Shown here in pieces: positions 1-10,738 of a stretch of DNA of 10,738 nt. The DNA is from Candidatus Omnitrophota bacterium (GTDB lineage: Bacteria; Omnitrophota; Koll11; VGKN01), in contig VGKN01000029.1 of NCBI GenBank assembly GCA_016867055.1, positions 1-10,738 on the forward strand. Direction: 5' to 3'. The position numbers and the translations under genes are program-made. Within the stretch, counting starts at the first letter, position 1, and the number at the start of each line of letters is the position of its first letter. The notes beneath the pieces were generated by a model. That model worked only from the letters and a program-made list of their open reading frames with translations, did no database searches and was not told the DNA's origin.

Positions 1-1
1 T

Positions 2-436
2 GTGATTGAGAATTTAGTAAATGCTAAAATGAAAATCAGGGCATATGACCCAAATCAGCAGGCAAGGATAAACGCCGCCAAGAAGCTAAGAGGGATGCTA
101 GAGATGAAATTTAGCGTTGCAGTTGTTGATGAAGGGTTAGAAGGGGATGTTAAGACAGATTTAGAAAAGATAGGGATAAGGGTTTTAACCAAAGAGCAGT
201 ATGCCCAACAAAAAGAAAAGGCAGATATAACAATTTTTGATGACAGGAATGATTCATTAAAAGACAGCGATGCCGCTGCTATAACCACAGAGTGGAGTGA
301 ATTTAGGTTTAACAGAGAACAGATTAAAAAAATAGGCAAACTCCTTAGAAGGAGACTTATATTTGATAGTAGGAATCTTATTAAACCAAAGGACATAAGA
401 AACCTCGGCTTTAGATATATCTCCATCGGCAGGCCT
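2..436 (+). other. UDP-binding C-terminal domain of a nucleotide-sugar dehydrogenase, copy 1 (partial at the left edge)
   Basis: Residues 1-145 follow the C-terminal domain pattern of the UDP-glucose/GDP-mannose dehydrogenase family. They contain an early AYDP strand (about 14-17), an ITTEWSEF segment matching the family's ilTeW.eF motif, and the closing strand-loop FDSRNLIKPKDIRNLGFRY ending in SIGRP (to residue 145). In the family this domain binds the UDP moiety of the sugar nucleotide. A stretch of about 50 residues between AYDP and the TEW motif is longer than usual. The start of the domain, and any NAD-binding and catalytic domains of this copy, would lie upstream, so whether it is an active enzyme cannot be judged. 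Confidence 0.8.
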
Positions 437-3400
437 GATGTAGAGCCAAACCGTATTTTGCAATTCTTTAAATCCTTAAATATAGCGCGCCTTCGGATGC
501 GTTTTCTATGGGATGTAACATTAATTTGTTTAACACACATAGATAAATACTCCCTAGCGCTTATTGAAAAACGCATTGTATGGGATTTTAATAAACTCTG
601 CCTACTTGCTGCGCTATCTTGCAAGGCAACATTTGCCTATGTGGTTTCTGAGATAGCGGAAAAGCAAGGCGCAAATGCCGATAGGGTATTGGCTGGGATG
701 GTAAGGGATAAGAGAATAGGCAGGGGAAGGGATATAGAAGAAGAATATTTTAGGCCGGGTCCTGGCATAGGAGGACCATATTTAATGCCTGCTGTTGAGA
801 TATTGGTAGAGCTTGGAGCAAAATATCTCACAGAAAAGGATGTTCCGAAAGTTGAGCCCTCGGTTGATGAGGTAAGACTTGGATTGCTAACTGAAATAGT
901 CCGGGCAAACACAGGTCAGATTGAGCATGTTATTGAGAGATTAAACGAAGCGCTTAAGGGATTAAATGGCAAAAACGTAGGTATTATCGGCCTTTCATAC
1001 AGGGCAGGAAAGGCGCAAACCGAAGGCTCTGGAAGTATTGTGGATACCCCATCCTTAGAGATTATAACAGGGATTTGGACTAAGACAAGAGTAATAAAGG
1101 TTTTTGACCCCGATGAAACGGTGAGGGATTATATAAGAAACGACTTGATAAGAATGAAGGTGAAGGATGTTAACGTGGTTCGTTCAATAGAGGCTATTTT
1201 AAATAGTAATAATCCTGTTGATGCTATTTTAATATTGACCGCTGATTCTAGATTTAAAGAATTTTTTGAGAAATTTGACTTCGCAAGTCTAAATAGAGAA
1301 AAACCACTTATAATATATGATACCTGCAATATACTTAACCCCGCAAAATTTCAAGGAAATCCCAATATTGTCTATATGAGGACAGGCAGCCCTGTCGTGC
1401 CTAATAACGCTCGCTTATCAATGGCAGCCGCCCAGACTACTCCAGCAACTGCAATGCGTTCTCACCTTTTCCCAAGATATATCCACGAGGCGCTAAGAAA
1501 TAGGCTCGCAGCGCTTAACAAACAATATCCCCTAATCTGGCCACAGGATAGAGTCAGCGCTATCCTTACACAAGGAGCAGCATATTACGACCCAATTAAC
1601 GGAAGGATTTTAGAGGATGAAGGTGCATATAAAGTTATAGCCACGATATTGACAGAGGTGTTATCGACACATGATAGACCACGTGAAGTTACACCGGAGG
1701 AAATAAAAGAAATCGCCTATGGAAAACATGAAGGGTTGGAACAGAGGGTTTACAAAGGGTCAATCAATTTTGCGCCCCTTGCCCAAGGCATTAAAGGAAA
1801 GATTAGCAGCAGTGAATTTGCTAAATTAAGAAGGTGTTTTCTAAATCAATATGCCTATCCGCGTCAAGACAGTGAATTTTCAGACCTTGATTTACTGCGC
1901 GAACTAACTGTGCATCTTATTATTGAGGGTTTACATTTTGGTAATCCGATAAGACTGCTTGGTGATGAGGACATAAGCAAGCCCTATGAGGGAAGAGTTC
2001 AATTAGATAGGGATACAGCCTTTATGTTAATAGATTTTGCCAGAGAACAAAATCTTATCACAGAAAAAGAGAAACTGCTTCTTAAGTTAGTGTATTCAGA
2101 AGAGGTCTTCTCTAAAAATTTAGTCCACACTCAGCCTATAGAAAAGGTATTATATGAAATAAAGTGCGATAAAAAGAACCCATTTGTTATCGTAAGAAAG
2201 ACCGCCTCAGGTAAATCCACCTGTGTGCCGATAGAGCTGTTGCTTGAGTCCCTTAGAAGAGGGGATAGCTCGCGTGTGTTTGTAGTCCAGCCAAGGGTTT
2301 TAGGTGTAATCTTGCTTGCCAGATATATAAATGCAAAGATGGGGTTTCCTCTTGTGGGCCAGATTACAAGCAAGGGAACAGTAAATGGCGATGCGCCCAT
2401 ACTTATGATTACTGACGGAGAGCTTGTTAATCTTGCCAAGGGAGGAAGGATTGACCCTAAAAGGGATAAGGTTATTGTAGATGAGTTTCACGCCGTTACT
2501 GATTTGATGGAGATAGGGGTTGCCCTTTGTCTGCATCGGGGGATATATACAGCAGCGATGTCAGCAACCATAGAGCCCTCCAGCGTTGTGGAATACCTCT
2601 CTGAGCCCGAAAGGGGTATAACTGCTGTCTCCTATGTTGAAGGTAAAGAGGAACGCCGTTATCCCCTAGAGCATTTTCGCGCAAAGGAATATTTCTCTGA
2701 CGCTAAGAGAGATGGCAGGGTGCAGATAGAAGATTTTATGCATAGGTATATTGCTAAACACTTGCTTAGCGAACGGCGCCAAGACGGAAGCGCTAAATCC
2801 GCCCTTGTCTTTGTCAATAAGGTAAGCGAGGTTGAAGATTTGGTCGCTCTGATAAATTCCGGCTCAGGGGCTGGAATTTCTCCTGCGGTTATGGCGAGAT
2901 ATGAGGGTGTTTTAGAACACTACAGATTTGGCAGAGATAAGGTTGTGGCAATTCCGCTTTATGCCGAGATAGTGCATGATGATAAAAGACTAGATGGTTT
3001 TGAAGCTAAGATAAGATATTGCAAAGAAAAGAATATCCCCTTTGTTATTGTAGCCACCAATGTAGCCGAGATGTCAATAACCCTGGATATTGACGATGTA
3101 ATAACCCTTGATACCGAATACCGTGAATTTGGCGCTGAGGGCAGGGCTCGCCTGGAGATATGCCCCATTAGGGTAAATTCGTATATTCAAAGGGCAGGTA
3201 GGTGCGGCAGGCTTCGCCCGGGAAGGTGTTTCCTTGTGGATAGTCCAGTTGATGATTATGAGAGGCAGTATGTCTTCCTCAGGAAAGAACTCGCGGAGAG
3301 CAAGGTAAACACGGCAAAAGACCTATCTCAGCTTGAGCCAGAGCCGATAGAACCGCCCCTTCAGAACGCTGACCTTAAGACATTTGCCTTCACTATCCTT

Positions 3401-6400
3401 GAAACAGGTATTCCCCTTGAAGAGCTTAAGCTTATGTCAAAGATTACCCCGGAGTTTAGAGAAAATTACGAGAGGGAGGTGATATTAATCAAGGACCTTG
3501 GCTTGGCTGATAAGAGTAATAGGCTTACCCCCTTAGGCAGAACAGTAAGTAGATTATCCCTTGAAAACCTCCATTATGCCACGCTTTTGGCAAGGGGGCT
3601 TGAGGATGAATTTTTAGATAAGGATACAAAAATAGCCTTGGCTATTATGTGCGCCTTTGCCGAAAATGTGGATTTCTATAGTTTAAGCAGGGACAAAAAA
3701 AGCGTTGGAGAGATGCTAAGATGGCTTAACGACAGAAAATTGGTTTATCCTACTTCAGACCTGATAACCCTTTATAACCTTGTCCAAGACTTTATGGCTG
3801 TGGGGCAGTCCAGCGACAGCCGCGAAAGGAGATATCTTGAGAGTATGGGGTTATCAAGCCCCACATTCTATAATGCCCTGCAGCGCGCGCGCATCCTGTT
3901 TATGTCAATGAGAGATATGGGTGTTGTAGATGAAGGTTTTCCGCGCAGCCTGCCAAAATTGACAGAGGAACAACAGGCGCAATTACTCAATTTCCTTGCC
4001 CGAACAAAGGTCTTTTCAAAATTCACTATGCATTCAGATAGATTAGGTTTTAACGACAGAGATAGTGCCAAAGGAGGCGGCGTAGTGCATCAGGTTCGAA
4101 ACTCACCAACAGGCTTAATGGTCAAATATCTGCGGGATTACCTGATAGTAGGTGAATCGACCCGAGAGATAGAAAGAGTGAGATTCTTACGACGATACAT
4201 AGAAGCTGAGGATAAAGCCGAAGAAGGGGAAGAGGCGGTGGTAGAAAGAATAGAAACTGGTGAGAAGGAGACAGTGCACATAATTCCAATAGCCGTGCTT
4301 GCTATTAAAAAACCAGAACCAAATGATTATGAATCAACAGAAGGTTGGCTATACCGCTTGGCAAAGGTAAATTATCCATCTGACCTGAGATTCTATTTCT
4401 ATAGTCTTGGTTATACGGGAAATATAATTTCGCACAGAGCCTTGGTTGCTGCAGACCATAGGTTAGAAATAGAATGGAAGGTTGAAAGGCTTTTGGAGAA
4501 TTTAGCTAAATACCCGAATATAAAGAAGGCAACCGAAGAATATCTAAGGATACTCAACGAGGTGTCTGAATTAACTAAAAAAGACCCCTCATTAGAAGAA
4601 GTGTCTAGTAAACTGGAAGAACTATATGACCTCTTTGGAAATATATTTTTAAAAATATGCGACCAGAATAATCTCTTTTCATTAGAGGAGCTTGAAAGAT
4701 ACCTTGCTAAACACCCGGTGAGCGTAACCTTGGATAACTTTATTAAACAAGAACACCTTGAGAGAATCCGCGAAACTAGCCCCGATGAAATAACCTACGG
4801 AGGTAAAACCTTCCCTATACTATATAAGAAAGGAAAGGGGGCCCTTATTATTGAACAGGGTCTAAAGGATGTTATCTTGCCCGATAATTTATCAGAGGTG
4901 CTGCCAATAAATTTAAGGGATTTATTAGCCAACCACGACCTTTTTAAGATTCCGGATGACGCTCTGGATAAATACAATCGAGACTTTATAATAATGATTG
5001 GTTATACCGAAGATAGATACGAACGTAGATACGATTATAGCACAACCTCTCTTGCTGAAGCCAAAAAGGTGTTTTTAGAAAGAGTTATTGAAATGATTAT
5101 AAACAGAGTTAATAAAAAACAAGATGCCGATGCTGAGGTTAGAAAAGGAGAGGATAATATAGATGATATAATAAACTCTCTTCCATTTGCGATACCCAGA
5201 CTCCCGCTTTGTATTGACCTAATCGGTCAAACTGTATATGGCTATGAAGGCCTGGTGTGTTATCCTAATGATAAATATATAGGAAAGCAGGTGTTCAAAA
5301 CAGAGGAGGAGGCTAAAAGAACTACTATGTGGAACCTTAGGACTATAGTTCAGAGAAAAGTATTCCGGCCTTATGAGACAGAAGAATTTAATCTTGCGTT
5401 ATCAAGATATCCGGATATTCAAAGAAAGTATTCCGATGCTAAGTTAGCTGTTCAAAGAGAGGTTGAACAAAGAGTTTCTCTTGATATAAGTTCTGATGAA
5501 ATTTTAGGGTTAATTGCTGAGTTATCACCACGCGTTCAGGCAATGGTTAGAGAATACGGGGCGCTGATTGCTGAGGCTGACCAATCAGCTAATCTTGCCA
5601 AGGGAGGTGTGTTAGCGGTGAAGAAAGTAGAAGCACCGGTAATATTAGAAGAAAAAGGTGAGCAAATCTCTGCAAGAGATATGATAAACCAGCTCCCGTT
5701 TGCTTGTCCTCAGGTTAAAGACGGCTGGCAGGGATGGATAGCGCTGTATCGCAGGTATTATATAAAAACATTTGATACACAAAAAGAGGCGCAGGTAAGT
5801 TCATCGATGGCTCTTGGGTTAGCCATAAGAGAAGAAGCGCATCAAAGCGCCACAAGAGAGAAACCCGCCTCTGTGCAGTTATCAAAGAAACACCAACAAG
5901 GGTTTGAGGCAGAGCTTAGCAGGGTATTGGATGCTGGCAGCGAAGAGGTTACCCTTGATATTACACCTTCTAAGGCAGAAGGGATTATTGAAGGTAAAAC
6001 TCAGGCGATAGTTAAATTATTAGAGAAGAATGAAAGGATACAAGATTTGAAGGCTAGATTGAGAAGGCCTTATAAGAGAGATGAATTTCATTTAGTTAAA
6101 AGATTTGTAATTGTTAATAAGGCCCTTTTTGACCAAGATACGATAGTGGTGTTTAGTAGTCCAAAAGATATTTCTGATGTTTTAGATGAGAAATATTCCT
6201 ATGAGCAAATAGATGATGCATTAATTCAGGAAACTGAGAGATGTCTCGCTATGTTAGAAGAGGTTATTGAAATCTTAGATTACAGGACAATAAAAGAAGG
6301 GGCACGTGTTGCGGGGGCGAAATTAACACCTGAATATATAAATGCGCAATTTCTTACGCGCTGGCAGGCATGGCCTATAGTATTAAAAGCGCTCAGAGAG

Positions 6401-8341
6401 TTTAATGCACAATTTAAAGACGAAGGGGCAAGAAGAGAGGCTATTAAGGCGTTATCGCTGGGTCCAGAGGGTATAGGGAAATGGCTGGATGCTCATTTAC
6501 TTGACCTAATTGTTGAGATACAAAAACCCGCACCACCAGCCGAGGCTATACCTCCCCAACCAACCCCAGCCGCCACTCCAACCGTTGTTTCAGGAGTCAC
6601 CGCGTCAGGAGCCACCGCACCAGCTGTGTCCCACGCCGCCCAAGCCCAAACCACCCTCCAGCAGGCAAAGGAGTTATTGAAAGAGGTGGGGATAGAGATA
6701 GAAAAACCAGATGAGATAACCATAGCCCCTCCTCCTGAGGCAGAAGGCGTTATACTTAAGGTTGGAGAAGGAGAGCCCATTCATCTGCGTGCACCGCCAA
6801 CCATAGCTGAGTTATTCTTCCTCATCGCCCTCCAAGTTCATAAGAATTTTCATCATATAGCTATATCCAGACTAAAGACCAGCCTCACCCAACTTCAAAC
6901 CAGACAACCCGAAGCCTTCAAAGAACATTTTGCTGTGGTATTTGGGGACAAGGAGCTTAGTAAGATGTTCCTTGTAGGTTTTGACAGCGCTATACAGTCC
7001 TATCTCGCTACGGCAGGCATACAAATAGAGAGGTTGATAGCCCGTTCTGGTCAGATTGGAGAGATAATAGCCCTTCTTGAGGAAACCAAGGAAATGGATG
7101 CAGATACGCTTAAGATGTTGATTGAAAAGGACACAATAGGAAGACTTATTGATACCTTGGGATATGAGAATAGCAGACAAATTATAACGAGGATAAAAGA
7201 TACATATGACCTTGTGAAGGTTTCTAAATACCTTCCAGTGCTTCTTGACTATATATCCTCTGCCGTTGAGAAAGGCGGTTTAACCTCTGATGAGATAACA
7301 TCTCTAATTGGGATGCTTTTAAAAAGAGAAACCGTCGCAGAATTCTCCTCTTTAGCATCGTTTATTAATACTGCACCAGAGACATTCCGAGAGGCTTTTG
7401 ATAGATTGGGCTCTGCAGCTGTTATTGAAATTATTGACCTTGCTTTGGATTTGTTAGGGACTGCAAGGGGTGATGATTTAATTAGAATTAGAAAAATTGT
7501 TCCAGATTTAGCATATATCTGCGCAGAGGGAAATATAAAGCCAGAGGATTTAGCCTCTATCTTAAGGATTCTGATTGATGCGAGAGGGAAAACCCCACCC
7601 CTAGAATCTTTAGATTTGCCTACCTTCATCCATTATAAAGAAAATCCGGCTGTCCCAATTACTAGTTGGGGAATAGAAGGTTGGGATTTAGGCAAACCCT
7701 GTGACTTATATACTATTGCAGATAAGGTTGAGTCAGGCGTATTGGTTAGGCTAATTCAACAGGCTGTGGATAATGGGATTGTTGGACATCGCCTTGTGGC
7801 ATACCTTAATGCCTTAGTTAGTCTTTATAGTGCCACAGGGAAAAAGCTGGGAGAGGAGTTAAATAGAGTTTTGGATATTGCTATAGGTCACAATGCAAAG
7901 GGTGATACCCTCCTCTATTTTGTGGGAGCGGTATTGCCAGTTGCTTTGGGGAAATTTGGGACAATCCAGGCAGTTTTTGACAAAATCTCTACTATGAGCG
8001 AAGAAGAATTCTACCTCTTTTACAATGGATATTTATGCCTTGCCCTAATTCCCAAAGAGCGGGAGAGATTGCGCAGGCTTGATTCTAGAAAACTCGCCAT
8101 TATAGTGGATACATTATCGTCTTTCTTAACACGGGTAGATCCTAAGGGTCTTTTTTGGGATGTCACGTTAGCACAAAGAACCAAAATAGTAGAGAGGTTA
8201 TCTGAATTTTTTGAAAACATAGGAGATTTAGAAGGCAGAAAGTTACCCATAGAAAAAATCTCCATAATAATGGATTTAATTAAAGATTGGTTTAAAAGTG
8301 GACAATCTGGGAAAATTTCAAATTTTTTCTTTATGTCATAA
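2..8341 (+). CDS. Giant multidomain protein, 5' partial: degenerate UDP-sugar dehydrogenase copies + DEAH helicase + repeats + alpha-solenoid
   Basis: An uninterrupted 2,779-codon frame runs from the window edge to TAA. The GTG at position 2 is probably not the start. The first residues (VIENLVNAKMKIRAYDP) already sit inside a UDP-binding domain, whose usual leading GlaFKp..DiReSP strand would have to be encoded to the left. Order by residue: UDP-binding domain 1-145; second dehydrogenase copy about 190-466; unknown 467-710; DEAH helicase 711-1312; helical unknown 1313-1661; repeats 1662-2030; Pro/Ala linker 2175-2218; helical solenoid 2219-2779. No signal peptide or clear membrane segment was seen, though the true N-terminus is missing. 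The last residues before the stop (NFFFMS) break a helical pattern that resumes in frame 1, so the stop is probably not the natural end. The coding call is secure. The overall function is not recognised. Confidence 0.92.
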   Translation: MIENLVNAKMKIRAYDPNQQARINAAKKLRGMLEMKFSVAVVDEGLEGDVKTDLEKIGIRVLTKEQYAQQKEKADITIFDDRNDSLKDSDAAAITTEWSEFRFNREQIKKIGKLLRRRLIFDSRNLIKPKDIRNLGFRYISIGRPDVEPNRILQFFKSLNIARLRMRFLWDVTLICLTHIDKYSLALIEKRIVWDFNKLCLLAALSCKATFAYVVSEIAEKQGANADRVLAGMVRDKRIGRGRDIEEEYFRPGPGIGGPYLMPAVEILVELGAKYLTEKDVPKVEPSVDEVRLGLLTEIVRANTGQIEHVIERLNEALKGLNGKNVGIIGLSYRAGKAQTEGSGSIVDTPSLEIITGIWTKTRVIKVFDPDETVRDYIRNDLIRMKVKDVNVVRSIEAILNSNNPVDAILILTADSRFKEFFEKFDFASLNREKPLIIYDTCNILNPAKFQGNPNIVYMRTGSPVVPNNARLSMAAAQTTPATAMRSHLFPRYIHEALRNRLAALNKQYPLIWPQDRVSAILTQGAAYYDPINGRILEDEGAYKVIATILTEVLSTHDRPREVTPEEIKEIAYGKHEGLEQRVYKGSINFAPLAQGIKGKISSSEFAKLRRCFLNQYAYPRQDSEFSDLDLLRELTVHLIIEGLHFGNPIRLLGDEDISKPYEGRVQLDRDTAFMLIDFAREQNLITEKEKLLLKLVYSEEVFSKNLVHTQPIEKVLYEIKCDKKNPFVIVRKTASGKSTCVPIELLLESLRRGDSSRVFVVQPRVLGVILLARYINAKMGFPLVGQITSKGTVNGDAPILMITDGELVNLAKGGRIDPKRDKVIVDEFHAVTDLMEIGVALCLHRGIYTAAMSATIEPSSVVEYLSEPERGITAVSYVEGKEERRYPLEHFRAKEYFSDAKRDGRVQIEDFMHRYIAKHLLSERRQDGSAKSALVFVNKVSEVEDLVALINSGSGAGISPAVMARYEGVLEHYRFGRDKVVAIPLYAEIVHDDKRLDGFEAKIRYCKEKNIPFVIVATNVAEMSITLDIDDVITLDTEYREFGAEGRARLEICPIRVNSYIQRAGRCGRLRPGRCFLVDSPVDDYERQYVFLRKELAESKVNTAKDLSQLEPEPIEPPLQNADLKTFAFTILETGIPLEELKLMSKITPEFRENYEREVILIKDLGLADKSNRLTPLGRTVSRLSLENLHYATLLARGLEDEFLDKDTKIALAIMCAFAENVDFYSLSRDKKSVGEMLRWLNDRKLVYPTSDLITLYNLVQDFMAVGQSSDSRERRYLESMGLSSPTFYNALQRARILFMSMRDMGVVDEGFPRSLPKLTEEQQAQLLNFLARTKVFSKFTMHSDRLGFNDRDSAKGGGVVHQVRNSPTGLMVKYLRDYLIVGESTREIERVRFLRRYIEAEDKAEEGEEAVVERIETGEKETVHIIPIAVLAIKKPEPNDYESTEGWLYRLAKVNYPSDLRFYFYSLGYTGNIISHRALVAADHRLEIEWKVERLLENLAKYPNIKKATEEYLRILNEVSELTKKDPSLEEVSSKLEELYDLFGNIFLKICDQNNLFSLEELERYLAKHPVSVTLDNFIKQEHLERIRETSPDEITYGGKTFPILYKKGKGALIIEQGLKDVILPDNLSEVLPINLRDLLANHDLFKIPDDALDKYNRDFIIMIGYTEDRYERRYDYSTTSLAEAKKVFLERVIEMIINRVNKKQDADAEVRKGEDNIDDIINSLPFAIPRLPLCIDLIGQTVYGYEGLVCYPNDKYIGKQVFKTEEEAKRTTMWNLRTIVQRKVFRPYETEEFNLALSRYPDIQRKYSDAKLAVQREVEQRVSLDISSDEILGLIAELSPRVQAMVREYGALIAEADQSANLAKGGVLAVKKVEAPVILEEKGEQISARDMINQLPFACPQVKDGWQGWIALYRRYYIKTFDTQKEAQVSSSMALGLAIREEAHQSATREKPASVQLSKKHQQGFEAELSRVLDAGSEEVTLDITPSKAEGIIEGKTQAIVKLLEKNERIQDLKARLRRPYKRDEFHLVKRFVIVNKALFDQDTIVVFSSPKDISDVLDEKYSYEQIDDALIQETERCLAMLEEVIEILDYRTIKEGARVAGAKLTPEYINAQFLTRWQAWPIVLKALREFNAQFKDEGARREAIKALSLGPEGIGKWLDAHLLDLIVEIQKPAPPAEAIPPQPTPAATPTVVSGVTASGATAPAVSHAAQAQTTLQQAKELLKEVGIEIEKPDEITIAPPPEAEGVILKVGEGEPIHLRAPPTIAELFFLIALQVHKNFHHIAISRLKTSLTQLQTRQPEAFKEHFAVVFGDKELSKMFLVGFDSAIQSYLATAGIQIERLIARSGQIGEIIALLEETKEMDADTLKMLIEKDTIGRLIDTLGYENSRQIITRIKDTYDLVKVSKYLPVLLDYISSAVEKGGLTSDEITSLIGMLLKRETVAEFSSLASFINTAPETFREAFDRLGSAAVIEIIDLALDLLGTARGDDLIRIRKIVPDLAYICAEGNIKPEDLASILRILIDARGKTPPLESLDLPTFIHYKENPAVPITSWGIEGWDLGKPCDLYTIADKVESGVLVRLIQQAVDNGIVGHRLVAYLNALVSLYSATGKKLGEELNRVLDIAIGHNAKGDTLLYFVGAVLPVALGKFGTIQAVFDKISTMSEEEFYLFYNGYLCLALIPKERERLRRLDSRKLAIIVDTLSSFLTRVDPKGLFWDVTLAQRTKIVERLSEFFENIGDLEGRKLPIEKISIIMDLIKDWFKSGQSGKISNFFFMS
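569..1399 (+). other. Second nucleotide-sugar dehydrogenase copy, N-terminally truncated and lacking the catalytic Cys
   Basis: Residues about 190-285 match the central helical domain of UDP-sugar dehydrogenases. KLCLLAALSCKATF (198-211) corresponds to the family's ElvKlaaNaflA.kI.F, EIAEKQGAN to Eia...Gad, and RDKRIG to the D.RIG motif. GPGIGGPYLMPAV (253-265) corresponds to the active-site loop G.G.GG.C.P.D. Lys198 is kept, but the conserved Asn becomes Leu202 and the nucleophilic Cys becomes Tyr260. Residues about 323-466 form a second UDP-binding domain (GKNVGIIGLSYRA, DTPSLEII, VFDPDE, DAILILTADSRF). Only about 45 residues separate it from copy 1, too few for a Rossmann NAD-binding domain. 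It is therefore probably a catalytically dead binding or structural module. Family assignment is good; loss of activity is inferred. Confidence 0.75.
1400..2131 (+). other. Unrecognised region between dehydrogenase and helicase modules
   Basis: Residues 467-710 open with an Ala/Thr/Pro-rich connector (MAAAQTTPATAMRSHLFP) and then become mostly helical with many charged residues. No family motif was recognised. The last helices (about 665-705) lead straight into the first helicase strand and may belong to that domain as an N-terminal extension. No separate start or ribosome-binding site is evident, so it is read as part of the same polypeptide. Confidence 0.5.
2132..3937 (+). other. DEAH-type (HrpB/HrpA-like) ATP-dependent helicase module
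   Basis: Nearly all superfamily-2 DEAH motifs occur in order. Motif I is KTASGKST (733-740); Ia is VVQPR; Ib is ITDGEL; II is DEFH (827-830), the variant seen in HrpB; III is MSAT (853-856); IV-like is ALVFVNK; V is ATNVAEMS (1018-1025); VI is QRAGRCGR (1063-1070). A winged-helix/HA2-like part follows (about 1121-1240, with LTPLGRTVSRL), then SDLITLYNL (about 1252) like the S/GDH..LLn segment after HA2 in the family. The family unwinds RNA or remodels RNPs using NTP. One oddity is that the first Walker A Gly is Arg732, while GKST itself is intact. The ATPase core looks functional. The helicase identity is strong; assignment to HrpB rather than HrpA is moderate. It is embedded in a much longer chain rather than being a free protein. 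Confidence 0.88.
2428..2445 (+). repeat. 18-nt exact direct repeat, copy 1
   Basis: The sequence taatcttgccaagggagg is identical to 5590-5607 and lies in the same reading frame, encoding N-L-A-K-G-G. Here it falls between helicase motifs Ib and II. Flanking bases differ on both sides. A shorter relative (tgccaaaggagg) lies at 4066-4077. Confidence 0.85.
3938..4984 (+). other. Unrecognised, mainly helical region after the helicase
   Basis: Residues 1313-1661 hold an A-K-G-G motif at 1356-1359, an acidic Glu-rich patch at about 1401-1423, and a possible coiled coil at about 1487-1580 (runs of L/E/K heptads such as KVERLLENLAK and SSKLEELYDLF). They also hold a beta-rich segment beginning YGGKTFPI (1599-1606). 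The last could be a remnant of the beta domain that follows HA2 in some DEAH helicases, but I cannot show this. No catalytic motif was seen. Confidence 0.45.
4070..4087 (+). promoter_or_regulatory. Possible internal ribosome-binding site with in-frame GTG
   Basis: AAAGGAGG (4070-4077) is a strong Shine-Dalgarno match. It is followed after 7 bases by an in-frame GTG at 4085-4087 (Val1362). It falls just downstream of the helicase, where a separate product could sensibly begin. The same bases are needed to encode A-K-G-G-G, so the match may be a by-product of coding. Use as a start is unproven. Confidence 0.25.
4985..5113 (+). repeat. Internal protein repeat, copy 0 (short): beta hairpin plus F/Y.T..EA helix
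   Basis: Residues 1662-1704 read FIIMIGYTEDRYERRYDYST followed by TSLAEAKKVF and a long helix. Alignment by eye with the next two repeats keeps an aromatic-rich strand, a short turn, another strand ending in S/K/D-T, and then an E-A helix start. It is preceded by LFKIP, which resembles LPFAIP and LPFACP before the other copies. The pattern recalls AP2-like or integrase Arm-type DNA-binding folds. This copy is the weakest of the three, so repeat membership is tentative. Confidence 0.35.
5150..5590 (+). repeat. Internal protein repeat, copy A
   Basis: Residues 1717-1863. The order of elements is DIINSLPFAIP (1722-1732), a strand pair with YGYEGLVCYPNDKYIG, then VFKTEEEA starting a helix, RPYETEEFNL (from 1789), VSLDISSDEILGLI, and a final helix just before the NLAKGG motif. 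The same elements recur in copy B, starting 171 residues later, with some order change: the RPY element lies after the LDI element there. The G.V....Y.G..F.T..EA segment resembles AP2/Arm-type DNA-binding beta sheets, which would suit a nucleic-acid-handling protein. That functional reading is inference only. Confidence 0.6.
5590..5607 (+). repeat. 18-nt exact direct repeat, copy 2
   Basis: This is the second copy of taatcttgccaagggagg, 3,162 bases downstream of the first, again encoding N-L-A-K-G-G (1864-1869). Here it lies at the junction between repeat A and repeat B. Confidence 0.85.
5600..5620 (+). promoter_or_regulatory. Possible internal ribosome-binding site with in-frame GTG codons
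   Basis: AAGGGAGG (5600-5607) is followed by in-frame GTG codons at 5609-5611 (too close) and 5618-5620 (spacer of 10 bases). It sits between repeats A and B, a natural module boundary, and overlaps the second copy of the 18-nt repeat. As at 4070, A-K-G-G coding alone could explain it. Confidence 0.18.
5660..6088 (+). repeat. Internal protein repeat, copy B
   Basis: Residues 1887-2029. The elements are DMINQLPFACP (1893-1903), GWQGWIALYRRYYIKTFDT followed by QKEA and a helix, VTLDITPSKAEGII, and RPYKRDEFHL (from 2022). These match copy A at DxINxLPFAxP, at G[YW][EQ]G, at F.T..EA, at V[ST]LDI[ST] and at RPY..[ED]EF. The RPY element matches copy A at DNA level too: 20 of 23 bases are identical between 5367-5389 and 6066-6088. 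That supports true duplication rather than chance resemblance. Confidence 0.6.
6089..6523 (+). other. Unrecognised helical region before the Pro/Ala linker
   Basis: Residues 2030-2174 are predicted by eye to be mostly amphipathic helices, with a short strand (TIVVFSS) early on. Trp-containing segments (LTRWQAWPIVLKALREF, GKWLDAHLLDL) are prominent. No family was recognised. Confidence 0.4.
6524..6655 (+). other. Pro/Ala/Thr-rich low-complexity interdomain linker
   Basis: Residues 2175-2218 consist almost entirely of Pro, Ala, Thr, Val, Ser and Gly (for example PPQPTPAATPTVVSGV). They are encoded by locally GC-rich DNA that stands out from its AT-rich surroundings. The composition is typical of a flexible, disordered tether between folded parts. 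It separates the dehydrogenase/helicase/repeat half from the solenoid half. Confidence 0.8.
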
Positions 8342-9390
8342 AATTTGCTACTAAATTTGGTTTTGAGACATTGGAAACATTAGTAAAAACACTGGCAGAA
8401 AAACAAAAGGGATTAAAGCATCGCCTACCTTTAGATACATTTCTTGAAACTGCAGAAAGATTTTTACCAGAGGTTAGACTTGAAACTATCACGAGCATAT
8501 TTAACAAGGGAAAGGGTGAAGAAATTATTGCTATTCTTCGCTCAGGACTTATTCGCTACTTAGGAGAAGAAGCGGAGGCTAATATTGACAAGAAAGAACT
8601 AACCTTTTTAGCCCATGAACTTTTACCTGGATTAATAAAAACCGCCTCCATAGATGAACTTAGGGTTGTTTTAGTTATGGCAAAGGCTCTTGGCGTAGAT
8701 ATAGGCCAGATAAAAAATACCTCTCTTCTTAGTAAATGGGTAAATCTCATCCATAGGATTGGCAAGGAAAATTTAAGTAAGCTGCTTTCAAGCTGGCTTG
8801 AGAGTGGAAAGGATAAATCCGACTTAGATGAACTCCTTGATAAACTCTCTTATTTATCAGACCTAATTAAAAATTATGGTATTGATATTTTTGTTAAAGT
8901 AATTGCTAATGAAAAAACGAAAGAGGTATTTAGACAGTTTACTGCTTTAGGCGGTTTTAGCCCCTTTATCAGAGATAAAGACGATTTAGGAACCTTAATT
9001 GAGGCATTATCGTTTAAAACAAATAGGACACCCGCATTACAAGGTAAGGCAACCTTTAGTATAAATATTAAATGGTTGTTATCTTTCTTTAAACAAATAG
9101 AAATTAATATATCCACTCCTCTATTGTTTAAACTTGCTGTAGAAATCTTAATATCAGCAATAGATTGGAGTAGAAAAGACCTATTGCCCGAAGAATACTA
9201 TCAACTTTCACCCGCCCTACTAACTGTAGCCAAGTTAGAGATAGTCTATGAATTAGCGGATAGATTAACAAAGAGAGAGCTTACCATAGAGGATATCCTA
9301 AAGGATACCCCAGGTGCGATTAAACAGACCAGATTTCTAACAGATGAAAACTTAGGGGCATCCTTGTTGAAAGCAGAGAAAAGAGATGTA
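6656..9390 (+). other. Long alpha-solenoid-like helical region crossing the frame break
   Basis: After a short beta-containing start (EITIAPPPEAEGVILKVGEG), the protein becomes a long succession of amphipathic helices, in frame 2 to about 8329 and in frame 1 afterwards. Weak internal similarity is visible. YLPVLLDYISSAVEKGGLTS (from 2410) aligns with IVPDLAYICAEGNIKPEDLA (from 2499), and FLPEV and LLPGL helices recur after the frame break. This suggests divergent HEAT/ARM-like repeats, which usually act as protein-binding scaffolds. A non-helical insert containing WGIEGWDLGKPCDLYT lies near 7667-7714. The specific family is not recognised. Confidence 0.5.
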
Positions 9391-10738
9391 GCAAGAAATG
9401 TTCCTACTTTAGGTGGTAAGGTATATCGTATAAGAGAGAATGGGAGTCTTGCGGGTCAGGGGGAATGGGAAGGGTATTTTGCCATAGCAGAAAGTATTTG
9501 TGGTTATCGTATAGAAGACTTATTTATACCCTTGGGTTTAAGCTTTGTAAGAACAGGCTTCCTGCGAGGTGAAGGTGAAGAGAGTGTGGTATATTTAATC
9601 CTGCCATTTAGTTATTCTCCTGAAGTGCGTGCAGCTTTAGCTGATTGTTTAACTCGCCTTGATATCTTGGGTGAGGAGTTTTTAGACCAAGTTTCACTTC
9701 AAGGGAGATTAGATGACAGGGCAAAATATATCTATTATGCCTTAACTGGCTATAGACTTGCCCGCTCTCAGTTTGGAATGACTCATCCAAAAATTGATTA
9801 TTCTGAATTACAAAGTCCCTTTACCGCTCCCTGGGGAGTTTTAGGACCTTTGGTGCATGAGGGCTTACCTATCCCTCCAGTAGGAGAAGGTGGTATTAAA
9901 GCAGAGGGTAGGACAGACCTATTAGATAGGAGGACACTTGGAAGGGATTATCCCTTAGCTGTCCGTGAATATTCTATCTTCCAGACCCTTGCCTATTGGC
10001 TTTACACTGCTATGAATGTTAAGGAGCCAAAGACAGAGGAGGAATATAGGGCTATCGCTGCCTGGAAGGCTCTTCAGGAAGAAATGGATTTATTCTTTGG
10101 CAAAGCTAACCTAAGTGATGTCCTAAGTGTGCCGTGGTTTATTAAACCAAGAAAGGTAGAAGGATGGGTTGAGCTTAGAGAAGAAGCCCCAGGAGAGCCC
10201 ATAATGGCAAGTTTGGCACAGTTCTTTAAGGCTATAAAGGAATCGGACGTCATCTGTCAGAATATTGCTACCTTACCTGAGGCACTAATATTTGACGGAA
10301 GGTTGTTTTTATCAAAAGATACCCCCCATTTCAACACCCTTGTTGATGCAGTAAAAGAACTTAATATAACCCAAATATTACAAGAACTATATGGTGGGCT
10401 ATATATTGAAATGATTTGTTTTAACCTTAACCTGAACCCCTCTTTTACTGGCTTAGCTGAGGTTCAACTTGAACAAATTGAGCAAGATGGTGTGTTACAT
10501 AAGATATTGGTTGTTAACCTCTCTCCAAAGTTATTCCTGACAGATGACACCAATGCCATAAAGGATGCCCTAAGATTAGCTGTCCATAATAAGGTTCTTG
10601 AAGAAGCCTTAAAGCTATTAGGGCAATACATAGAAGAAGCCCTAAGACCCCAATTATCCGCAGTATCATTGGATTGTAAAGACAGTAAATTCCTATTAAA
10701 AGACTCTGACCAGATTATCCATACCTTCAACACTCTTC
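8296..10738 (+). CDS. Continuation of the giant protein in frame 1 after a frame break; 3' partial
   Basis: Frame 1 is open from just after a TAA at 8293-8295 to the right edge, 814 codons with no stop, and the translation has normal protein composition. It opens in the middle of a helix (FFLYVIKFATKFG, then FETLETLVKTLAEK) that matches the style of the preceding frame-2 region. No convincing independent start exists. The first in-frame ATG is at 8677, the TTG at 8371 has no Shine-Dalgarno-like sequence upstream, and the frames overlap by over 40 bases. The segment is therefore best read as the same gene displaced by one base. Its first 350 or so residues are helical and solenoid-like, and the rest is mixed alpha/beta. 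No known family was recognised. The natural stop lies beyond the window. Confidence 0.85.
8320..8329 (+). other. Frame-2 to frame-1 switch point (slippery-like A AAT TTT TTC or single-base indel)
   Basis: In frame 2 the codons here are TCA AAT TTT TTC TTT ATG TCA TAA. Two overlapping heptamers fit the X_XXY_YYZ pattern for -1 slippage in the correct phase: A_AAT_TTT at 8320-8326 and T_TTT_TTC at 8323-8329. A -1 step turns the ending NFFFMS-stop into NFFLYVIKFATKFG and opens the next 800 codons. The shift must occur between the frame-1 stop at 8293-8295 and the frame-2 stop at 8339-8341. One missing T in a T7 run, real or from sequencing, would look identical. No strong downstream hairpin and no upstream Shine-Dalgarno-like stimulator was found, so an indel is more likely than programmed frameshifting. 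Confidence 0.55.
9391..10737 (+). other. Unrecognised mixed alpha/beta C-proximal region
   Basis: In frame 1, from GGKVYRIRENGSL onward, the protein changes from all-helical to mixed strands and helices. Features include GQGEWEGYFAIAESICGYRI, Pro/Gly-rich loops (APWGVLGPLVHEGLPIPPVG), VREYSIFQTLAYWLY, and near the edge ILVVNLSPKLFL followed by AVHNKVLEEALKLLG. No catalytic motif or family could be named. The domain is cut by the window edge. Confidence 0.45.

What the first reader, a model, noticed from the sequence alone, without database searches (positions are those of the whole stretch)
2..10738. Giant fusion gene joining sugar-nucleotide dehydrogenase remnants, a DEAH helicase, DNA-binding-like repeats and a long solenoid
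The full window is coding, about 3,580 residues if the frame break is bridged, with neither end seen. Combining a UDP-sugar dehydrogenase fold with an HrpB/HrpA-like helicase in one chain is not a standard architecture I know. Giant ORFs of this style are reported in Omnitrophota and a few other uncultured lineages, where their roles are largely unknown. The helicase core is well kept, which argues against simple decay.
Basis: partly seen in the sequence, partly recalled or inferred. Interest (0 to 1): 0.75.

Follow-up and report, generated by a model that had tools for sequence, protein, structure and literature searches.

The report
Giant fusion: half-enzyme plus helicase
This is an inside piece of a very long modular protein, most likely from an uncultured Omnitrophota bacterium, in which the end of a sugar-nucleotide enzyme is followed by a disabled half-copy of the same enzyme, a pairing that recurs in related long proteins, and then by an RNA-helicase module.

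Summary
The window is coding throughout: one frame of 2,779 residues, a one-base frame slip at a T6 run, then an open frame to the end; neither gene end is seen. Relatives of three of its modules lie in long proteins of the phylum Omnitrophota. Residues 1-470 are the C-terminal domain of a UDP-glucose dehydrogenase (UGD) followed by a degenerate second copy (UGD') without NAD domain or catalytic cysteine. This pairing recurs: 12 other long frames carry an intact UGD directly followed by UGD' that starts at the central, dimer-forming domain; the cysteine loop is kept in 13 of 13 intact copies and lost in 15 of 15 UGD'. In 384 Omnitrophota genomes a UGD' profile gives nine strong hits, all in frames of 1,337 residues or more, then a clear gap. 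I propose that UGD' is a tethered pseudo-subunit completing the UGD dimer within one chain (inferred, not shown). The helicase is a complete DEAH/RHA module, found in no other giant examined. DNA-binding repeats got no support; the solenoid was not modelled. Relatives have signal-peptide-like starts and recurring linker peptides (the window shows no linker array), leaving exported, perhaps cleaved, enzyme strings as the boldest reading.

The parts
2..8341 (+). First open frame, 2,779 residues, cut at the 5' end of the window
2..439 (+). C-terminal (UDP-binding) domain of the first UGD copy, residues 1-146; the rest of this copy lies outside the window
   Evidence: model positions 353-434 at residues 65-145; 37% identity to G222 over window 1-505
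569..1402 (+). UGD': degenerate second copy, central plus C-terminal domain, residues 190-467; no NAD domain, cysteine loop reads GGPYLMPA
1457..2122 (+). Module M2, residues 486-707, shared with the G155 long frame; function unknown
   Evidence: E 1.6e-8; no reversed decoy hit
2120..4036 (+). DEAH/RHA helicase module, residues 707-1345: RKTASGKST (732-740), DEFH (827-830), SAT (854-856), QRAGRCGR (1063-1070)
6521..6649 (+). Pro/Ala-rich stretch, probably a flexible linker, residues 2174-2216
   Evidence: read; GC 0.55 for residues 2170-2260
6689..8338 (+).
   Evidence: no family over cut-off; not modelled
8323..8341 (+). Frame break: run of six T, then TAA of the first frame
8329..10737 (+). 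Second open frame, continuation of the protein, cut at the 3' end of the window
9658..10164 (+). Module M5 (residues 430-598 of the 789-aa ORF), shared with the G144 giant
   Evidence: E 9.2e-8; E 3e-9; no reversed decoy hit

Best explanation
The window is an internal stretch of a giant modular protein of an Omnitrophota bacterium, built as a string of exchangeable modules. Shown: its 5' part is the end of the UGD-UGD' unit that recurs in 12 other long frames; M2 and M5 are shared with two further Omnitrophota long frames; the helicase is a complete DEAH/RHA module. Inferred: UGD works as a dimer held together by its central domains; UGD', in most cases exactly the central plus C-terminal domain, packs on the intact UGD as a tethered pseudo-subunit, so that one chain forms a UGD dimer with a single active site. 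Inferred more weakly: the helicase keeps its ATPase motifs and is an active RNA-remodelling module gained late by this one protein; joining unlike enzymes in one chain keeps them together in place and amount.
For: UGD' follows an intact UGD and starts at model position 196-212 of about 434 in 12 of 12 frames where both copies are seen in this order (P0002, P0123, P0124, P0125, G222, G052, G055, G057, G059, G096, G121, G122). Cysteine loop GGSCFPKD kept in 13 of 13 intact copies, lost in 15 of 15 UGD'. Profile search of 384 genomes: nine hits at E 1e-101 to 7e-48, next 2e-28 and there only the C-domain of ordinary UGDs (the profile was built from five UGD' that include G222 itself). RSExR linkers border the unit and none lies inside in 9 of 9 counted frames. 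[quoted passage not shown] Window UGD part against G222: 44% identity, E 9.5e-83. Helicase: best PDB match Prp43, E 6.5e-24 over 654 columns.
Against: The partner arginine loop (DxR) is kept in only 4 of 15 UGD'. P0002's UGD' has the central domain only, no C-domain; P0126 has the order reversed. One origin of UGD' is only weakly supported (42/87). In the window the intact partner is cut off, so it is inferred from kin. Motif I of the helicase departs from the usual glycines (RKTASGKST). Other phyla were not searched with the genome tool, so the assignment to Omnitrophota rests on where hits were found.
Confidence: 0.6

Rival explanations
1. UGD' is a decaying leftover of a tandem duplication without a job, and the giant gene is a drifting collection of fragments.
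For: UGD' has lost the NAD domain and catalytic cysteine everywhere and is far more diverged than the intact copies (long branches); two frames depart from the pattern (P0002 short, P0126 reversed).
Against: The same domain limits in 12 of 12 frames, the same kind of loss beside intact partners, and long open frames in divergent genomes are not what neutral decay gives.
Confidence: 0.2
2. The window joins separate genes: an assembly chimera, or two neighbouring genes with a real stop at 8339-8341.
For: One frame break at a homopolymer; the helicase has a higher GC3 (0.45) than the other modules (0.31-0.38; Pro/Ala linker 0.44) and has no counterpart in another frame in hand.
Against: 2,779 codons without a stop run across every module border; UGD-UGD' recurs in independent assemblies; M2 ahead of the helicase and M5 behind the break both have kin in Omnitrophota long frames.
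Confidence: 0.1
3. The long proteins are exported enzyme strings that are cut at their recurring linkers (a bacterial polyprotein), and UGD-UGD' is one released unit.
For: RSExR 13, 9, 19 and 3 times in P0123-P0126 against shuffled means of 0.1-0.3 (maxima 2-3), bordering UGD-UGD'; AGLEE repeated in six long ORFs of G144, its DNA pattern 14 times there against 0-1 in five other genomes; signal-peptide-like starts in 10 of 10 UGD-bearing frames with a visible start, by eye, each with a hydrophobic run.
Against: The window, G222 and P0002 show no such array; no signal-peptide predictor was run, and a stricter hydrophobicity scan flagged the start of only P0002 among the five P proteins; no protease was looked for; NAD- and UDP-sugar-dependent enzymes have no substrates outside the cytoplasm unless delivered into another cell.
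Confidence: 0.12
4. UGD' is a regulatory domain that senses UDP-sugars rather than a structural partner.
For: The C-terminal, UDP-binding domain is kept in 14 of 15 UGD' (all but P0002).
Against: The central, dimer-forming domain is kept as well, at least in part, in 15 of 15, including P0002, which lacks the C-domain.
Confidence: 0.15

Closest known systems
Giant ORFs of Omnitrophota (Seymour et al. 2023, PMC10066038; passages seen)
   Same: Phylum, very long open frames, few annotated domains, role poorly understood.
   Different: The passages speak of adhesion and surface-polysaccharide degradation; they mention neither a UGD-UGD' unit nor a helicase (terms 'helicase' and 'UDP-glucose' have 0 occurrences in the main text).
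UDP-glucose dehydrogenase family (TuaD/UGDH)
   Same: Domain order and fold by sequence; intact copy in kin with GGSCFPKD and, in most, a GxGxxG-type NAD motif.
   Different: Second copy lacks NAD domain and cysteine and sits in the same chain.
DEAH/RHA helicases (Prp43, HrpA, HrpB)
   Same: All core signatures and the winged-helix and ratchet region behind them; fold match to Prp43 and E. coli HrpA.
   Different: About 20% identity to solved ones, motif I altered, fused inside a giant chain.
Tandem enzymes in which an inactive copy partners an active one (for example PRMT7; recalled, no call)
   Same: Inactive copy as dimer partner.
   Different: Four literature searches listed nothing of this kind for UGD; they cover open-licence papers only.

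Membership tests
Active UDP-glucose dehydrogenase (for UGD') | NAD-binding Rossmann domain with GxGxxG | tested here: not met
   model alignment of UGD' starts at position 196-215, behind the NAD domain, in the 12 tandems and the window; P0126 keeps a degenerate part from 146
Active UDP-glucose dehydrogenase (for UGD') | Catalytic cysteine loop GGSCFPKD | tested here: not met
   window GGPYLMPA; lost in 15 of 15 UGD'
Active UDP-glucose dehydrogenase (for the window's first copy) | Complete three-domain enzyme with catalytic loop | not testable with these tools
   only its C-terminal domain lies in the window and no genome is held
DEAH/RHA helicase | Core signatures GKS/T, DExH, SAT, QRxGRxGR | tested here: met
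   RKTASGKST, DEFH, SAT, QRAGRCGR; motif I glycines altered
DEAH/RHA helicase | Two RecA domains plus winged helix and ratchet | tested here: met
   model pLDDT 77.6, Prp43 match over 654 columns
HrpB or HrpA equivalogs | Score over the curated NCBIfam cut-off | tested here: not met
   53.1 bits against 546 (HrpB) and 33.7 against 723 (HrpA)
Omnitrophota giant ORF | Very long open frame in an Omnitrophota genome | tested here: inconclusive
   the frame is long and three modules have kin in Omnitrophota frames, but the window's genome is not held and 0 of 37 first Omnitrophota genomes matched the helicase-and-tail query
Linker-bearing exported modular proteins (RSExR, AGLEE) | Recurring linker peptide and signal-peptide-like start | tested here: not met
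   no linker array in the window; its N-terminus is outside the window, so that half is untested

The most novel reading that the evidence does not exclude
Omnitrophota make bacterial polyproteins: exported chains of whole metabolic enzymes (glucan and nucleotide-sugar enzymes, here also an RNA helicase), marked by lineage-specific linker peptides that a dedicated protease or sorting system reads, with self-contained modules such as the one-chain UGD-UGD' pseudo-dimer that work once released, perhaps inside a partner or prey cell.
Probability: 0.12. Interest if true: 0.92.

Novelty: new variant of a known kind. Interest (0 to 1): 0.6.

Why it matters
Giant proteins are common in uncultured Omnitrophota and their roles are poorly understood. 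A recurring UGD-UGD' unit gives them a module with concrete, testable biochemistry, and the small complete member in G122 (1,337 residues) makes the test practical. The linker arrays raise the question whether such chains are cut, which proteome data could answer.

Tried and rejected
Scans with the first-frame protein in genome contigs and viral contigs, with the second frame in viral contigs, and megablast of the window against phages found no relative. The first-frame protein search found one relative besides the window itself, P0002 (only the 7,985 candidates sharing most words were scored). The helicase slice found 161 hits, the 120 listed at 22-38% identity, by their names and Pfam lists ordinary helicases. 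PHROGs gave only weak UGD and helicase matches. A search of 37 Omnitrophota genomes with the M2-to-tail part of the first frame was empty.

A partner arginine (DxRIG) as the reason for UGD' was my first idea; it is kept in 4 of 15 copies (window, G222, P0002, P0126), so I dropped it as the general explanation. AKGG as a linker of the window (three times) is no more frequent than the shuffles' maximum. The fold of window 1-480 is worthless. The win_B query was read in a wrong frame and is void; redone. G059's 8,145-residue frame holds 5,500 X from masked bases, so its length means nothing; only its UGD-UGD' part is used. The other four G059 frames are artefacts of that stretch. G121 holds 10 X. 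G147 and G050 are weak matches in ORFs of 363 and 547 residues (the latter with a stop inside) and were not followed. G063 has a UGD C-domain at the cut start of a 3,118-residue frame but no UGD'. No other phylum was searched as a control, so 'Omnitrophota only' is not claimed.
Full report
What is there. The window is one coding stretch on the + strand. Frame 2..8341 is open for 2,779 codons and a second frame is open to the end. The break lies at six T followed by TAA; the other frame reads on from 8329. A slip in a homopolymer during sequencing or assembly is the simplest reading; a real mutation or programmed slip is possible. Both gene ends lie outside. An open frame of this length is not chance.

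Domains. Pfam and NCBIfam find UGD domains in the first 470 residues and a DEAH core at 712-1212. Ten slices of the rest gave no Pfam family over a cut-off. In an alignment of the helicase slice with 32 relatives chosen from the 120 listed, 31 columns are identical in all 33 rows, among them GK, DExH (here DEFH), SAT and QRxGRxGR; at a nearly invariant motif I glycine the window has alanine, and against Prp43 another motif I glycine is arginine. The AlphaFold2 model has mean pLDDT 77.6 and pTM 0.78; its best PDB match is Prp43 over 654 columns, E 6.5e-24, 20% identity, and E. coli HrpA comes at rank 28. So it is a complete DEAH/RHA module, not a member of the HrpB or HrpA equivalogs. It has no near kin among the proteins searched: the best of 161 hits is 27% identical.

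Where it comes from. Besides the window itself only P0002 (4,246 residues) resembled the first frame; one alignment runs through the border from the first UGD copy into the second. A published 16S probe led to 39 loci, 38 of them Omnitrophota by title or taxonomy and one titled Planctomycetota. A first search of 37 of these genomes with the M2-to-tail part of the first frame was empty. In 384 genomes of the phylum the same query hit one frame, G155, at M2; the second frame hit G144 clearly and two others weakly; the UGD part hit G222 with E 9.5e-83 and 44% identity in a contig that is one open frame of 3,922 residues, while the next hit, 4.5e-16, is an ordinary UGD. Against 25 other frames in hand (four of them artefacts of masked bases), M2 finds G155 (1.6e-8) and M5 finds G144 (3e-9); the only other hit is at chance level (0.099) and no reversed decoy was hit.

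The UGD-UGD' unit. G222 has an intact UGD followed by a copy without NAD domain. A search for long proteins with this unit returned five: P0002, P0123, P0124 (named Candidatus Omnitrophota by NCBI), P0125 and P0126 (1,954 candidates scored). A model built from 29 ordinary Omnitrophota UGDs maps the copies. In P0002, P0123, P0124, P0125, G222, G052, G055, G057, G059, G096, G121 and G122 an intact copy (in G052 with an insertion) is followed by UGD' beginning at model position 196-212, the start of the central domain. P0002's UGD' stops after the central domain. In P0126 the order is reversed. In the window and in G104 the intact partner is cut off. The 29 ordinary UGDs give one hit each. GGSCFPKD is intact in 13 of 13 intact copies and lost in 15 of 15 UGD' (G104 read from the printed start of its frame). 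Over 384 genomes a UGD' profile, built from five UGD' including G222's own, gives nine hits at E 1e-101 to 7e-48 in frames of 1,337 to 8,785 residues (G059's length is unreal), and then ordinary UGDs from 2e-28, matched in the C-domain. In a tree of 42 rows seven UGD' form one side of a branch, but weakly (42/87); window and G222 UGD' pair at 100/100.

Mechanism. Human UGDH protomers pair through the central domain, and Arg260 of one reaches the substrate of the other (PMC3184952, passages); [quoted passage not shown] A copy reduced to central and C-terminal domain, tied behind an intact copy, is what a one-chain dimer would need. I therefore propose a tethered pseudo-subunit. The arginine loop is kept in 4 of 15 UGD' and replaced (DPVV and like) in 11, so scaffolding rather than the arginine would be the common point. 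This is inference.

Company it keeps. Other modules over Pfam cut-offs in UGD-UGD' frames: UTP-glucose-1-phosphate uridylyltransferase, cytidylate kinase and B12/radical SAM in G222 and hexokinase in P0123; carbohydrate phosphorylase, PRPP-synthetase-type domains, PHP and HD in P0002; starch synthase in G055, nucleoside diphosphate kinase and a response-regulator domain in G052; a PPDK-like pair in a slice of G057; starch synthase in P0125 (precomputed list). Phosphorylase matches in G055 and G052 and a glycosyltransferase-2 match in P0002 stay below cut-off. G122 and G096 gave UGD domains alone over cut-off. Glucan and nucleotide-sugar work is a frequent but not general thread, and it is absent from the rest of the window. 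HrpB: 76 of 384 genomes gave weak matches in frames of 308-744 residues, 0 over cut-off. With the raised GC3 of the helicase a late gain is likely, not shown.

Linkers and export. P0123, P0124, P0125 and P0126 hold RSExR-type peptides 13, 9, 19 and 3 times (shuffled maxima 2-3; P0126 is weak). In nine frames counted none lies inside UGD-UGD'; the nearest upstream is within 23 residues in 8 of 9 and the nearest downstream within 10 in 4 of 9. G144 uses AGLEE: its DNA pattern occurs 14 times in that genome, 2 times read backwards, and 0-1 times in five other genomes; in five further regions chosen for the pattern it lies in ORFs of 729-2,300 residues with 3-7 copies. Starts look signal-peptide-like by eye in 10 of 10 UGD-bearing frames with a visible start, each with a hydrophobic run of 12 at 1.78 or more; no predictor was run, and a stricter scan flagged only P0002 among the five P proteins. 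The window has no linker array.

Literature. I saw passages of PMC10066038, PMC12057145, PMC13153191, PMC3184952 and PMC12493151, and listings otherwise. Searches for Omnitrophota with polyprotein and with nucleotide sugar dehydrogenase held no paper; two wider ones listed none on this unit. Only open-licence papers are covered. The giant-gene preprint of West-Roberts et al. is known to me from its citation and recall.

Verdict. New here: the 'remnants' belong to a recurring UGD-UGD' unit of Omnitrophota long proteins, and this giant adds a complete DEAH helicase.

Noticed in passing
window 8320-8341: The frame break lies in A AAT TTT followed by more T, the form of a minus-one slippery site, a few codons ahead of the stop; a homopolymer error is simpler. 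No downstream structure was tested.
   Followed up: partly
L045-L046 and L093-L097 (genome G144): Several long ORFs of one genome share the peptide AGLEE between modules and right behind a signal-peptide-like start: a genome-specific linker used by many proteins.
   Followed up: partly
L090 (genome G063): A 3,118-residue frame with SGRSLG linkers (5 exact copies) between unlike modules, one resembling a Ser/Thr protein kinase by eye.
   Followed up: no
L091 (genome G225): Two neighbouring UGD frames (889, cut, and 921 residues) are interrupted by about 450 residues at the catalytic cysteine loop, by eye inteins at the same site.
   Followed up: no
L089 (G222), near residues 1858 and 3815 of its frame: A nearly identical stretch with an HEALGH motif, like a site-2 protease (PF02163 below cut-off), occurs twice; the contig ends inside the second copy.
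   Followed up: no
starts of P0123-P0126, G052, G055, G057, G096, G122: A shared N-terminal domain with HIQ(E/D/T)AH and, in several, a TGGFH motif follows the signal-peptide-like start; Pfam names no family there in G122 and G096.
   Followed up: partly
window 2428-2445 and 5590-5607: An exact 18-base direct repeat in the same reading frame (NLAKGG); one copy lies inside the helicase.
   Followed up: no
L004 and L030: One Omnitrophota isolate carries the 16S probe site on two contigs.
   Followed up: no
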